From: Desulfovibrionales bacterium | Lineage (GTDB): Bacteria; Desulfobacterota; Desulfovibrionia; Desulfovibrionales; Desulfomicrobiaceae | Length of the DNA: 32,768 nucleotides | NCBI GenBank assembly: GCA_012729655.1 | Contig: JAAYCS010000163.1 | Location: 1 to 32,768, forward strand | Reading direction: 5' to 3' | In this document: piece by piece, positions 3,187 to 6,494 of the stretch | Layout of the letters: every line of letters starts with the position of its first letter | Position numbering within the stretch: position 1 is the first letter of the stretch | Program-made: the position numbers and the translations under genes | The notes under the pieces: model-generated | What the model was told of the DNA's origin: nothing | The model's database searches: none | The model's input: only the letters and a program-made list of their open reading frames with translations

Positions 3187-4020
3187 TTAGGCCATCGTTT
3201 CATCGAGAAGCTGACCCAGACGCTCCAGATGGGCCTTCTCCTCGCCCGCGATCTGCTCCAGAATCTGCCGGTTCTCGTCGCTTTTGGTCCAGGCTGCCGC
3301 TCGCGAATAAAGGTCCAGGGCCTGGGCTTCGATGGACATGGCCATGGACACGACATCCACCACACTGTCGAAGTCTGGTTTGAACCGGTCCATGTAGTCC
3401 TCGGTAGTCAGCCCCCCCTCCATGAACGGCGAGACCAGGGAACACTCAAAAGCCCCCCGGTCGTCTTGCCCTGTCAGGCGGGTATACTCGGCAAAAAGCC
3501 GGTCCTTGTGCTTGATCTCGATCTCAGCCAGCAGGCGGAAGACGCTTTTGACCCTCTCGTCCTGAACCCGGTCCAGCATCTTCAGATAGAAGTCCCGCAG
3601 CCCGTCTTCGAGAGAATAGGCCATGGCCAGAATCTTTTCAGCGCTGTTCAGTTCGGCAAACAGGTCCACCCCTTCATCTTCCCCCCCGAACGCGCTCTGC
3701 CCGTTCCAGGCCTTATAGCCACCACTCAGATTGATGACATGATCGTATCCCTTGCCCGACAGGGTCTGGGAGGCCACCCGGCTGCGACCGCCGATGGCGC
3801 AATAGACAACCACAGGCTTGGAAGGATCGATCTCCTCCAGCCTGTCGGTCAGCTCGGGCAATGGAACCAGCTTGGCCCCAGGGATATGTCCGGCTTCGTA
3901 TTCGCCCGGTTGACGGACATCGAGGATGGTCACCTCCTGCAGGGTCTTGTCGGACAGGTATTCCCTGACATCTGCAGCACTCATGGATTGGACCGGTGTA
4001 AAGAACTGTTTCCAACGCAT
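3187..4020 (-). CDS. Rhodanese domain fused to ferritin-like (rubrerythrin-type) diiron domain
   Basis: 277 residues in two domains. Residues about 10-110 are a rhodanese domain: VTILDVRQPGEYEAGHIPGA, active-site loop VYCAIGGRSR, and GGYKAW at the end. Residues about 125-277 form a four-helix ferritin-like domain with carboxylate and histidine ligands visible as EIEIKH and GEEKAH (two ExxH motifs) plus Glu in the helices beginning AMAYSLEDGL and AMSIEAQAL. This is the expected ligand set of a non-haem diiron site. No C-terminal rubredoxin domain is present, unlike classical rubrerythrin. GGAGG lies 9 bases upstream of the ATG. The fusion is known from anaerobes and suggests a link between sulfane sulfur and peroxide or oxygen defence. 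It is divergent from arsR-hgcAB and shares a 127-base intergenic region with it. Confidence 0.88.
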   Translation of the reverse strand: MRWKQFFTPVQSMSAADVREYLSDKTLQEVTILDVRQPGEYEAGHIPGAKLVPLPELTDRLEEIDPSKPVVVYCAIGGRSRVASQTLSGKGYDHVINLSGGYKAWNGQSAFGGEDEGVDLFAELNSAEKILAMAYSLEDGLRDFYLKMLDRVQDERVKSVFRLLAEIEIKHKDRLFAEYTRLTGQDDRGAFECSLVSPFMEGGLTTEDYMDRFKPDFDSVVDVVSMAMSIEAQALDLYSRAAAWTKSDENRQILEQIAGEEKAHLERLGQLLDETMA

Positions 4021-4147: not shown

Positions 4148-4417
4148 ATGAACAAAGATCACAATCTGGCCGTGCTCTGCAAGGCCCTGGGGCACCCAGC
4201 CCGGGTGGCCATCCTCCGGCATCTGCTGCAGGTGGACCGCTGCATCTGCGGCGACATCGTGAACATCCTGCCCCTGGCCCAGTCCACGGTCAGCCAGCAC
4301 CTCAAGCAGCTGAAGGAGGCCGGTCTGATCCGCGGTGAGATTGAAGGACCGTGCATCTGCTACTGCGCGGACAAAAATCGCCTGGCCGAACTCAAAAACC
4401 TCATCACCGCACTGTAG
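4148..4417 (+). CDS. arsR: ArsR/SmtB-family regulator of the hgcAB operon
   Basis: 89 residues forming a single winged-helix domain. The HTH is visible as [20 protein letters not shown], preceded by [14 protein letters not shown], both typical of ArsR. Metal or thiol sensing is suggested by C32 and C34 (RCICGD, at the helix-3 CxC position of ArsR-type sensors) and a Cys cluster C69/C71/C73 near the wing. These proteins repress DNA and release it on metal or metalloid binding. hgcA follows after 6 bases, so the two are almost certainly one transcript. An arsR-like gene next to hgcA, and co-transcribed with it, is known from other mercury-methylating sulfate reducers. Whether the inducer is Hg, As or another signal cannot be read from the sequence. 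Confidence 0.93.
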
Positions 4418-4423
4418 GCCCTT

Positions 4424-5608
4424 ATGAAACCGCTGCAGCCCTTTCCCATGGCGCCTTCCGGATCCTGCGAGGCTCCTTGCTCAGGGACCGAAATCTCCAA
4501 GCCGACCCCCTCGGCTCCGGGAGCGTGCTGAGGACCTCCGCCGGCCCCTGGTGCAGGGGTGGACGACCTTCCTGGCTATCGCATCGAACCTTATGTGGAT
4601 ACGTTCATGCCCACCGCCGCAGGGCGCATTCCTCGCGTCCGGACCAGTCCCACGGCCTGGGACCGGCTCGGGACCTGCCGGGCCCGGCTGGGCCTGGACC
4701 GCAATCAATATATCGTCAACCCTGGCCTTTTTGCCGTAGGCCTGCCCGACGCCGGTTCGCCCGTGGTCGTCACCGCCAACTACAAGCTGACCTTCGACAC
4801 GGTCCGCTTCGCCCTGGCCGGGCGGGACGTCTGGCTGCTGGTGGTGGACACGCGCGGCATCAACGTCTGGTGCGCGGGCGGCAAGGGCACCTTCAACGCA
4901 GCCGGCGTCAGCGAGCAGGTCAGAAAGACCGGGCTCGAGCGCGTCGTGTCCCACCGTCAGCTGATCCTGCCCCAGCTCGGGGCCAACGGAGTGCGGGCCC
5001 TCGACCTGCGCAGGACCTGCGGGTTCGAGGCCGTGTTCGGACCCGTCCGGGCCGAGGACCTGCCCCGCTACCTGGACCAAGGCATCGACGAGGCCATGCG
5101 CGAGGTGACCTTCACCCTGCGGGAGCGGGCCACCGTCATCCCCGTGGAGCTGGTCCTGGGCTGGAAGCCCATCCTGGGCGCCTTGGCCGTGGCGGCGGTC
5201 CTGAGCCTTTTCGGGTACGGATTCTCCCTCGGGGCCGTCTGGAGCCGCTGGCTGGTGGCGGCAGGAGGCACCATCATGGGCCTCTTCTGCGGCGCGGTCC
5301 TCTTCCCTCTGCTCCTGCCGTGGCTGCCGCGCGCCTTTTCCCTGGGGGGGGCCGGACTCGGGCTGGCCGGCGCCCAGGTGCTGCCCCTTTTCTTCCCGCA
5401 CGCCCCCTGGCCGGCACTGGCCGGGGCGGGGATGTGGACCGCCGTCCTCTCGTCCTGGCTGGGCCTCAATTTCACGGGTTCCACGCCCTACACCTCGCCG
5501 TCGGGCGTGGAGAGGGAGATGCGCCGGGCCATCCCGGTTCTGGCGGCCTGCACCCTGCTGGCGTTGGTCCTGTTCGTGGCCGGAGGCTTCGCCGGTGGAT
5601 CGGCATGA
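4424..5608 (+). CDS. hgcA: Mercury methylation corrinoid protein HgcA, probable selenoprotein (in-frame UGA, residue 36)
   Basis: HgcA transfers a methyl group from its corrinoid to Hg(II). The diagnostic cap-helix motif NVWCAGGK is at residues 147-154, with the Cys that coordinates cobalt at 150, inside a CdhD-like corrinoid domain (ANYKLTFD and VVDTRGINVW nearby). About five membrane helices follow from residue 245 to the end, the known HgcA plan. The conventional open frame starts only at GTG 4559, which has no spaced ribosome site. The same frame extends upstream through a single TGA (4529-4531) to ATG 4424, 6 bases after arsR. That gives 394 residues with C15, C19, C35 and a residue-36 UGA in the context AC-UGA-GPPP. 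A SECIS-like hairpin follows. Identity is nearly certain; selenocysteine is a strong inference. The alternatives are initiation at 4559 or 4607, or a nonsense mutation. Confidence 0.93.
4532..4569 (+). promoter_or_regulatory. Candidate bacterial SECIS element downstream of the hgcA UGA codon
   Basis: Thirteen bases after the in-frame TGA (4529-4531) lies a 6-bp stem, CCCCTG (4545-4550) with CAGGGG (4554-4559). The apex reads GGTG, so if the last G-C pair opens the loop becomes GGUGC. A short internal loop with an unpaired U (4560) and CC/GG pairs (4541-4542/4561-4562) extend it, and AGG/CCU (4531-4533/4567-4569) could close the base. In the classical E. coli element the upper stem begins about 11 bases after UGA and carries GGU in its apical loop, which SelB reads. 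The spacing and apex here agree. The structure was found by eye; no folding energy was computed. Confidence 0.6.
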
Positions 5609-5880
5609 AACGCTACCGCCACCTCGAAAACGTGACCACCTTGACCTATGACAAAGCCAAGTGCGTGGGCTGCGGCCTGTGCGCCACGGTCTGCCCGCAC
5701 CGCATCTTCGCCCTGCAAGGCGGCAAGGCCGAAGTCCTGGACCGCGAGGCTTGCATGGAGTGCGGGGCCTGCGCCCTGAACTGCCCCACCGCGGCCATCA
5801 CGGTCACACCCGGTGTGGGCTGCGCCCAGTACATCATCCAGACCTGGTTGCCGGGCAAGCGCAGGACGTCCTGCTGCTGA
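5605..5880 (+). CDS. hgcB: Mercury methylation ferredoxin HgcB
   Basis: 91 residues. The start overlaps the hgcA stop (ATGA), so the two are translationally coupled. Two [4Fe-4S] motifs are complete: CVGCGLCATVCP (C20, C23, C26, C30) and CMECGACALNCP (C50, C53, C56, C60). C73 in the GVGCAQYI segment and the terminal pair C90-C91 match the extra conserved cysteines of HgcB. HgcB reduces the HgcA corrinoid to Co(I) for remethylation, and the terminal Cys pair is thought to bind and deliver Hg(II). All residues needed for that role are intact. Together with HgcA this predicts a mercury-methylating organism. Confidence 0.96.
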   Translation: MKRYRHLENVTTLTYDKAKCVGCGLCATVCPHRIFALQGGKAEVLDREACMECGACALNCPTAAITVTPGVGCAQYIIQTWLPGKRRTSCC

Positions 5881-5939
5881 ATCCTTGACCACGGCCCCGA
5901 AATGGCTGATCTTTTCGCTTCCAAATCACGGAGGACACC

Positions 5940-6494
5940 ATGCTCGACCGCGCTGAAGCGCTGGCCTTGCTCAAGGCCAGCGCCCCCGACCAACTCTATG
6001 TCCACGCCCTGGAAACCGAAGCCGTCATGCGCGCCCTGGCCGAACGCCTCGGCCACAATCAGGAGGTCTGGGGCCTGGCCGGTCTGCTGCACGACCTCGA
6101 CTACCCGGAAACCAAGGACACGCCCGGAAAGCACGGCCTGCTGACCGCGGAAACCCTGACCGGCAAGCTGCCGGACGACGCCGTGCAGGCCATCGCCCGC
6201 CACAACGAGATGAACGGCAACCTGCCCCAGACCCCCTTCGACTTCGCCCTGCGCTGCGGCGAGACCGTCACCGGGCTGATCCACACCGCCGCCCTGGTCC
6301 GCCCCACCCGCATGCAGGGCATGGAGGCCAAGAGCCTGAAGAAAAAGATGAAGGACAAGGCCTTCGCCGCCTCGGTCTGCCGCGAAACCATCAAGGAATG
6401 CGAGAAGATCGGCCTGGAGCTGGCCGACTTCCTGACCCTGGCCATAGGAGCCATCACGGGCATCGAGGCCGAGGTGGGACTGGCGGCGTCCTGA
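5940..6494 (+). CDS. HD-domain (HDIG-type) metal-dependent hydrolase
   Basis: 184 residues. The ATG at 5940 has GGAGG at 5930-5934, 5 bases upstream. The HD signature is LLHDLDYPE (H51-D52), with an earlier His in YVHALETEAVM (H22) and later His residues in GKHG and ARHNEMNG that fit the remaining metal ligands. HD proteins of this size are phosphohydrolases acting on nucleotides or related phosphoesters; the substrate is unknown. It starts 59 bases after hgcB and ends 4 bases before recC on the same strand, so it could bridge the hgcAB and recCBD transcription units. I see no feature that ties it to mercury methylation. Confidence 0.85.
   Translation: MLDRAEALALLKASAPDQLYVHALETEAVMRALAERLGHNQEVWGLAGLLHDLDYPETKDTPGKHGLLTAETLTGKLPDDAVQAIARHNEMNGNLPQTPFDFALRCGETVTGLIHTAALVRPTRMQGMEAKSLKKKMKDKAFAASVCRETIKECEKIGLELADFLTLAIGAITGIEAEVGLAAS

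What the first reader, a model, noticed from the sequence alone, without database searches (positions are those of the whole stretch)
4424..4569. HgcA appears to be a selenoprotein: in-frame UGA in a Cys-UGA-Gly-Pro motif with a SECIS-like hairpin
Seen: the hgcA frame is open from ATG 4424 (6 bases after arsR) to 5608 except for one TGA at 4529-4531. The region before the TGA has a coding-like composition and encodes C15, C19 and C35. Thirteen bases after TGA is a CCCCTG/CAGGGG stem with GGU at its apex. The only start after the TGA is GTG 4559, which lies inside the stem and has no spaced ribosome site. Known: bacterial SECIS elements sit directly downstream of UGA and present a GGU-containing apical loop to SelB; sulfate-reducing deltaproteobacteria are rich in selenoproteins. 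Inference: an N-terminal Cys-Sec pair next to the corrinoid domain could bind Hg(II) or relay electrons. I recall Cys-Cys-Gly-Pro-like N-termini in some HgcA proteins, which would make this a Cys-to-Sec swap, but I cannot check it. Standard annotation would truncate this protein.
Basis: partly seen in the sequence, partly recalled or inferred. Interest (0 to 1): 0.92.

Follow-up and report, generated by a model that had tools for sequence, protein, structure and literature searches.

The report
Mercury-methylating enzyme with built-in selenocysteine
In this sulfate-reducing bacterium the gene for HgcA, the enzyme that turns mercury into neurotoxic methylmercury, reads an internal 'stop' codon as the rare amino acid selenocysteine; this kind of HgcA was predicted in 2023, and the comparison made here supports it strongly and suggests that the laboratory version of the enzyme may have been studied without that part.

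Summary
The hgcA frame (ATG 4424 to stop 5608) is broken only by TGA 4529-4531, in Cys35-Sec36-Gly-Pro. Relatives carry TGA or Cys there: 57 Sec and 42 Cys among 127 HgcA of a phylum sample, 47 more Sec in the order. In Cys-stop-[Gly/Pro]-Pro context the stop was TGA 86 times, TAA/TAG never. A hairpin with a GG/GU loop lies about 18-20 nt after the UGA in nearly all Sec genes, beyond what the protein demands, and covaries; Cys genes lack it. The restart codon GTG 4559 is not conserved. selA, selB and selC are present; selD is missing from this incomplete MAG but present in 13 of 16 genus genomes. Haft & Gwadz (2023) predicted HgcA selenoproteins; a 2026 review lists motif 'CU'. Possibly new: all readable HgcA of the genus resembling ND132's have the Sec, and the 'Cys93' numbering and 37 kDa mass of the studied ND132 enzyme fit a protein begun after the Sec, so published work may concern a form lacking this arm. 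The arm's function (probably an Hg(II) ligand) is inferred.

The parts
4148..4417 (+). arsR, ArsR/SmtB-type metalloregulator just upstream of hgcA
   Evidence: NCBIfam NF033788, 71.1 bits, cut-off 55
4424..5608 (+). hgcA, read through the internal TGA as Sec: 394 aa, 41.5 kDa; C150 (NVWCAGGK) corresponds to ND132 Cys93
   Evidence: NF040863 HgcA, 372.9 bits, cut-off 275; frame; mass
4424..4528 (+). codons 1-35: N-terminal arm, conserved start MKPLQPFPM, ending in Cys35
   Evidence: M[K/E]PLQPFPM in ten Desulfomicrobium species; 112 synonymous against 34 nonsynonymous pairwise codon differences in codons 1-11; disordered in the AlphaFold model
4529..4531 (+). TGA codon for selenocysteine 36 (Cys-Sec-Gly-Pro)
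   Evidence: TGA in all 10 Desulfomicrobium HgcA examined; TGA 86, TAA 0, TAG 0 in this context across loci; Cys in many homologues
4544..4560 (+). SECIS-like hairpin: stem 4544-4550 / 4554-4560, apex GGU(G)
   Evidence: loop about 19 nt after the UGA; codons CCT GGT GCA GGG invariant in ten species
4559..4561 (+). GTG that standard gene callers would use as the start of a truncated hgcA
   Evidence: GTG in 8 of 10 Desulfomicrobium species, GTA and GTC in the others
5605..5880 (+). hgcB, two-cluster ferredoxin, Cys form (GVGC; ends SCC)
   Evidence: NF040864, 124.7 bits, cut-off 99; GVGC

Best explanation
hgcA of this Desulfomicrobium encodes a selenoprotein. UGA 4529-4531 is decoded as selenocysteine by SelB and tRNA-Sec, guided by the hairpin at 4544-4560, giving a 394-residue HgcA with a vicinal Cys35-Sec36 pair on a flexible N-terminal arm before the corrinoid-binding domain. 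Shown by comparison: the codon, its exchange with Cys, the hairpin, and the Sec machinery. Inferred (about 0.5): the Cys-Sec (or Cys-Cys) pair is a soft-metal ligand that takes up or hands over Hg(II) or methylmercury near the corrinoid, like the C-terminal Cys pair of HgcB; Sec would bind Hg more tightly. It is probably helpful rather than essential, because many HgcA lack the pair and the apparently truncated ND132 protein made in E. coli still supports methylation. The confidence given is for the selenocysteine claim.
For: Frame open but for one TGA. TGA in all ten Desulfomicrobium HgcA examined, including single-contig genomes. 57 Sec, 42 Cys and 28 neither in a phylum sample; 47 of 63 order loci Sec. 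TGA 86, TAA 0, TAG 0 in the Cys-stop-[Gly/Pro]-Pro context. Hairpin beyond amino-acid need: Sec mean z 2.45, 43 of 57 with P<0.05; Cys mean z 0.09, 4 of 32; Mann-Whitney 3e-12. Covarying pairs by register. Synonymous sites frozen in the stem: CCT GGT GCA GGG in 10 of 10. selA 628 bits, selB 367 bits, selC 83.4 bits with anticodon TCA; selD in 13 of 16 genus genomes. selB in 79 of 80 Sec-HgcA genomes. Literature: review PMC13188914 lists HgcA 'CU' citing Haft & Gwadz 2023; PMC11588087 cites the same work. Arm disordered, rest of the model mostly pLDDT 89-98.
Against: No protein-level evidence. Single-sequence fold not significant. selD not found in this MAG (36.8 bits, below cut-off; MAG 88.6% complete). 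selB is also common in genomes with Cys or no pair (66 of 74), so its presence does not discriminate. Some HgcA lack any pair, so the arm is not universal. A few Sec genes score a weak hairpin under the strict scheme used (L038, L127, L174).
Confidence: 0.94

Rival explanations
1. The TGA is a real stop; the functional HgcA is started at GTG 4559 and the upstream 35 codons are a leader peptide or remnant.
For: A GTG lies in frame after the TGA and the conserved HgcA model begins later, at residue 69. An apparently truncated ND132 HgcA is active in E. coli lysates (PMC11588087).
Against: GTG is GTA in L033 and GTC in L037; no spaced ribosome site; the stop is never TAA or TAG (86 to 0); Cys replaces it in homologues; the hairpin is kept beyond coding need only in TGA genes; the amino acids on both sides are conserved.
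Confidence: 0.03
2. Both products are made: a Sec-containing full-length HgcA when selenium is present and a shorter, Sec-free HgcA from an internal start when it is not. (A complement to the best explanation rather than its opposite.)
For: In-frame GTG codons follow the TGA in many loci, at window codon 46 in 8 of 10 Desulfomicrobium and at the codon equivalent to window residue 58 in many order loci. The short form appears functional in E. coli lysates (PMC11588087).
Against: The internal starts are not conserved in position or sequence, and the one in the window lacks a spaced ribosome site.
Confidence: 0.15
3. HgcA is a selenoprotein, but the Cys-Sec pair serves redox chemistry (a selenenylsulfide switch or electron relay to the corrinoid or HgcB) rather than Hg binding.
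For: Vicinal Cys-Sec is a redox centre in other selenoproteins (general knowledge); the corrinoid must be reduced to Co(I) (PMC11588087).
Against: Extra Cys-rich stretches, not defined redox motifs, accompany the pair in many homologues, which suits a metal-binding tail; HgcB clusters are thought to supply the electrons (PMC11588087). Neither function was tested here.
Confidence: 0.3
4. Sequencing error, pseudogene, or UGA read as tryptophan.
For: None found.
Against: The same TGA in ten species including single-contig genomes; hgcA itself and hgcB end with TGA; intact conserved frame after it.
Confidence: 0.01

Closest known systems
HgcA selenoproteins with a CU motif (NCBIfam NF040863; Haft & Gwadz 2023, J Bacteriol 205:e0025922; listed in PMC13188914)
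   Same: HgcA with an N-terminal Cys-Sec pair; this gene scores 372.9 bits against NF040863 and the review gives motif CU with one Sec.
   Different: The original paper is not held in the library, so I could not see whether Desulfomicrobium or ND132 was named, or whether the hairpin was tested.
Cys-form HgcA (CCGP, CCGG, CCPP), for example L019, L027, L041, L045, L179
   Same: Same family and same two-residue position before the corrinoid domain.
   Different: TGC or TGT in place of TGA, and no SECIS-like hairpin.
HgcA of Pseudodesulfovibrio mercurii ND132 as characterised (PMC7305189, PMC11588087)
   Same: Same domain order and cap-helix Cys (Cys93, here C150).
   Different: Its numbering and 37 kDa mass fit a protein that starts at the position of window residue 58, after the Cys-Sec pair; ND132 itself is not in the set searched.
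HgcB selenoprotein form (GVGU) listed in PMC13188914
   Same: Partner protein that also has a Sec form.
   Different: HgcB here has Cys (GVGC); none of 87 matched HgcB had GVGU.

Membership tests
HgcA (mercury methylation corrinoid protein) | Score above the curated cut-off of the HgcA model | tested here: met
   NF040863 372.9 bits, cut-off 275
HgcA (mercury methylation corrinoid protein) | Cap-helix Cys in NVWCAxGK, corrinoid domain, then membrane helices | tested here: met
   NVWCAGGK with C150 invariant in 61 sequences; model with an alpha/beta domain and long helices from about residue 239 to 390
HgcA (mercury methylation corrinoid protein) | hgcB next door | tested here: met
   NF040864 124.7 bits, cut-off 99, directly downstream
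HgcA (mercury methylation corrinoid protein) | Methylates Hg(II) | not testable with these tools
   needs culture or purified protein
Bacterial selenoprotein | In-frame UGA in a column that is Cys in homologues, with conserved sequence on both sides | tested here: met
Bacterial selenoprotein | Hairpin just downstream of UGA with G in the apical loop, under selection | tested here: met
   single-sequence fold alone not significant
Bacterial selenoprotein | selA, selB and selC in the genome | tested here: met
Bacterial selenoprotein | selD in the genome | tested here: inconclusive
   not found in the 88.6% complete MAG; over cut-off in 13 of 16 genus genomes
Bacterial selenoprotein | Selenium in the protein | not testable with these tools
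   needs 75Se labelling or mass spectrometry

The most novel reading that the evidence does not exclude
The HgcA of the model methylator ND132 is itself a Cys-Sec selenoprotein whose annotated start (residue 1 at the position of window residue 58) lies after the Sec, so that the published recombinant enzyme lacks the Cys-Sec arm. Basis: all readable HgcA of the genus whose residues best match ND132's (up to 35 of 39 published positions) have CUGP (one locus CUDP), the C93 numbering falls on an in-frame GTG after the TGA in many of them, and that form weighs 36.0-36.5 kDa against the 37 kDa reported. Whether Haft & Gwadz already said so could not be checked.
Probability: 0.75. Interest if true: 0.7.

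Novelty: new member of a known kind. Interest (0 to 1): 0.45.

Why it matters
Microbial methylmercury enters fish and people, and selenium is known to affect mercury toxicity. If HgcA in many methylators carries a selenocysteine beside a cysteine at its N-terminus, selenium supply could directly affect the methylating enzyme, gene catalogues that start HgcA after the TGA are truncated, and in vitro work on a truncated protein may miss a metal-handling arm. The family-level idea is published; the breadth of Sec use (about 100 loci in two samples), the evidence for selection on the SECIS, and the likely truncation of the model enzyme are what this check adds.

Tried and rejected
Restart at GTG 4559: rejected (codon not conserved). 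A second Sec at the end of hgcB (SCC-TGA followed by a conserved block in Desulfomicrobium): rejected, because the frame after the TGA shifts between species and runs into the next gene in different frames. HgcB GVGU form: looked for, none in 87 matched HgcB. Single-sequence folding as proof of SECIS: not significant. Other in-frame TGA candidates in the window (13326 +, 9744 -): no convincing Cys/Sec context, the second antisense to the large helicase-like genes; not pursued. Identifying ND132 among the genomes by published residues: best match 35 of 39, so ND132 is not in the set. selB as a discriminator between Sec and Cys HgcA: too common to help. Haft & Gwadz 2023 could not be read. Plasmid search: no match.

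Full report
WHAT IS THERE. The window lies in a 2.84 Mb, 88.6% complete MAG whose nearest named relatives are Desulfomicrobium. The hgcA frame runs from ATG 4424 to the stop at 5606-5608 and is interrupted only by TGA 4529-4531. Read as Sec, the protein has 394 residues with Cys35-Sec36-Gly-Pro-Pro-Pro. It scores 372.9 bits against the NCBIfam HgcA model (cut-off 275), the next gene 124.7 bits against HgcB (cut-off 99), and the preceding gene is an ArsR-type regulator.

IS IT MORE THAN CHANCE. The hairpin alone would not convince: the 47-nt fold is no better than dinucleotide shuffles (z -0.60), and about 0.9% of all TGA triplets in the window have a hairpin of at least the same score. Comparison decides. 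In ten Desulfomicrobium genomes (71-84% identity to the window protein) the TGA is always there, Cys precedes it, and the four codons CCT GGT GCA GGG that make up most of the hairpin are identical in all ten, whereas third positions of the neighbouring Gly-Pro-Pro-Pro codons vary. In a phylum-wide sample I read 127 HgcA domains: 57 with TGA in the N-terminal motif, 42 with Cys-Cys, 28 with neither, some of them cut by contig ends. In the order, 47 of 63 further loci have the Sec motif (one of these, L191, has an odd AKGUGPCC context and may not be genuine, and L161 repeats L018). In the Cys-stop-[Gly/Pro]-Pro context the stop was TGA 86 times and never TAA or TAG. The Sec label is clustered on the HgcA tree but needs 15 changes there, so Sec and Cys or absence have been exchanged repeatedly.

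THE SECIS. For each Sec gene I scored the best hairpin with G[G/T] in its loop and compared it with synonymous resamplings of the same peptide in the gene's own codon usage. Sec genes: median stem 6 bp, mean z 2.45, 43 of 57 with P below 0.05. Cys genes, taken at the same place: median stem 3 bp, mean z 0.09, 4 of 32 (Mann-Whitney 3e-12). The loop starts mostly 18-20 nt after the UGA. Within hairpin registers the pairs exchange G-C, C-G, A-U and G-U. The scan parameters were chosen after seeing the window hairpin, so the contrast with Cys genes, not the absolute z, is the fair test; ten sites with unrelated upstream TGA and eleven loose Cys sites were excluded by eye. For the window gene itself the resampling P is only about 0.3, because its Pro/Ala/Gly-rich peptide makes GC-rich hairpins easily.

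MACHINERY. selA (628 bits), selB (367 bits) and a tRNA-Sec with anticodon TCA are in the genome. selD was not found, but 13 of 16 genus genomes have it, itself interrupted by a TGA, so its absence is most simply a gap in the MAG. selB is over cut-off in 79 of 80 Sec-HgcA genomes and in 66 of 74 others.

RESTART. The codon of GTG 4559 is GTG in eight of ten Desulfomicrobium species, GTA in L033 and GTC in L037, and has no spaced ribosome site. Restart is therefore unlikely as the main mode, though a minor short product is not excluded.

WHAT IT MAY DO. The AlphaFold model (mean pLDDT 89.2, 61 sequences) leaves residues 1-40 at low confidence and most of the rest well ordered. HgcB carries a flexible C-terminal Cys pair proposed to move Hg(II) or methylmercury (PMC7305189). 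By analogy the HgcA arm would be a second soft-metal ligand. This is inference. Because many HgcA lack the pair, and because lysates of E. coli with ND132 HgcA methylate mercury (PMC11588087), the arm is unlikely to be essential.

WHAT IS KNOWN. Haft & Gwadz 2023 (J Bacteriol, not held here) reported selenoproteins in methylmercury biosynthesis; [quoted passage not shown] The finding is therefore a member of a described family.

A POINT THAT MAY BE NEW. Published ND132 residues (20 in HgcA, 19 in HgcB) were matched to all loci, numbering the Cys of NVWC as 93. The best were L167 and L164 (35 of 39), of genus g294. Every HgcA of that genus that covers the region reads CUGP, mostly CUGPKPDP or CUGPRPDP (L195 has CUDP; L169 is cut short). 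Residue 1 in the C93 numbering is window residue 58, and in many of these loci it is an in-frame GTG after the TGA. A protein from there weighs 36.0-36.5 kDa, against 42.5-43.1 kDa for the full form; the purified ND132 HgcA was reported as 37 kDa. So the ND132 enzyme as studied probably lacks the Cys-Sec arm. ND132 itself was not in the searched set, and I cannot say whether others have noticed this.

Noticed in passing
window 5879-5940: After the hgcB stop TGA all ten Desulfomicrobium species keep a block like CCTTGACC-N-CG...GAAATG before the next gene (HD-domain protein), although the reading frame shifts between species; probably a regulatory or leader sequence, not coding.
   Followed up: partly
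window 3187-4020 (-): Gene with a rhodanese domain joined to a ferritin-like stretch, divergent from arsR-hgcAB.
   Followed up: no
L080, L112, L118; L097, L105: Sec stands before the Cys (TUCA, TUCP, TUCS) or after a Gly (GUSP, GUCP) instead of the usual Cys-Sec order; a hairpin is kept.
   Followed up: partly
L021, L022, L024, L043, L044 (hgcB downstream of hgcA): HgcB variant with NPDDGCGCA in place of TPGVGCA around ND132 Cys73 and a C-terminal CGC instead of CC, all next to Sec-type hgcA.
   Followed up: no
L061 and L110 (same genome, G306): One genome carries two hgcA copies, one Cys-type or atypical and one Sec-type.
   Followed up: no
genus genomes, L151, L152: selD is itself interrupted by one TGA in 13 genomes of the genus and was not found in this MAG.
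   Followed up: partly
G208, G183, G337, G232, G355: Several genomes of one family (f72) have two selB-like genes over the cut-off.
   Followed up: no
L199 (G424:C6:5995-8478): A Sec-type hgcA that appears split into two frames near residue 192.
   Followed up: no
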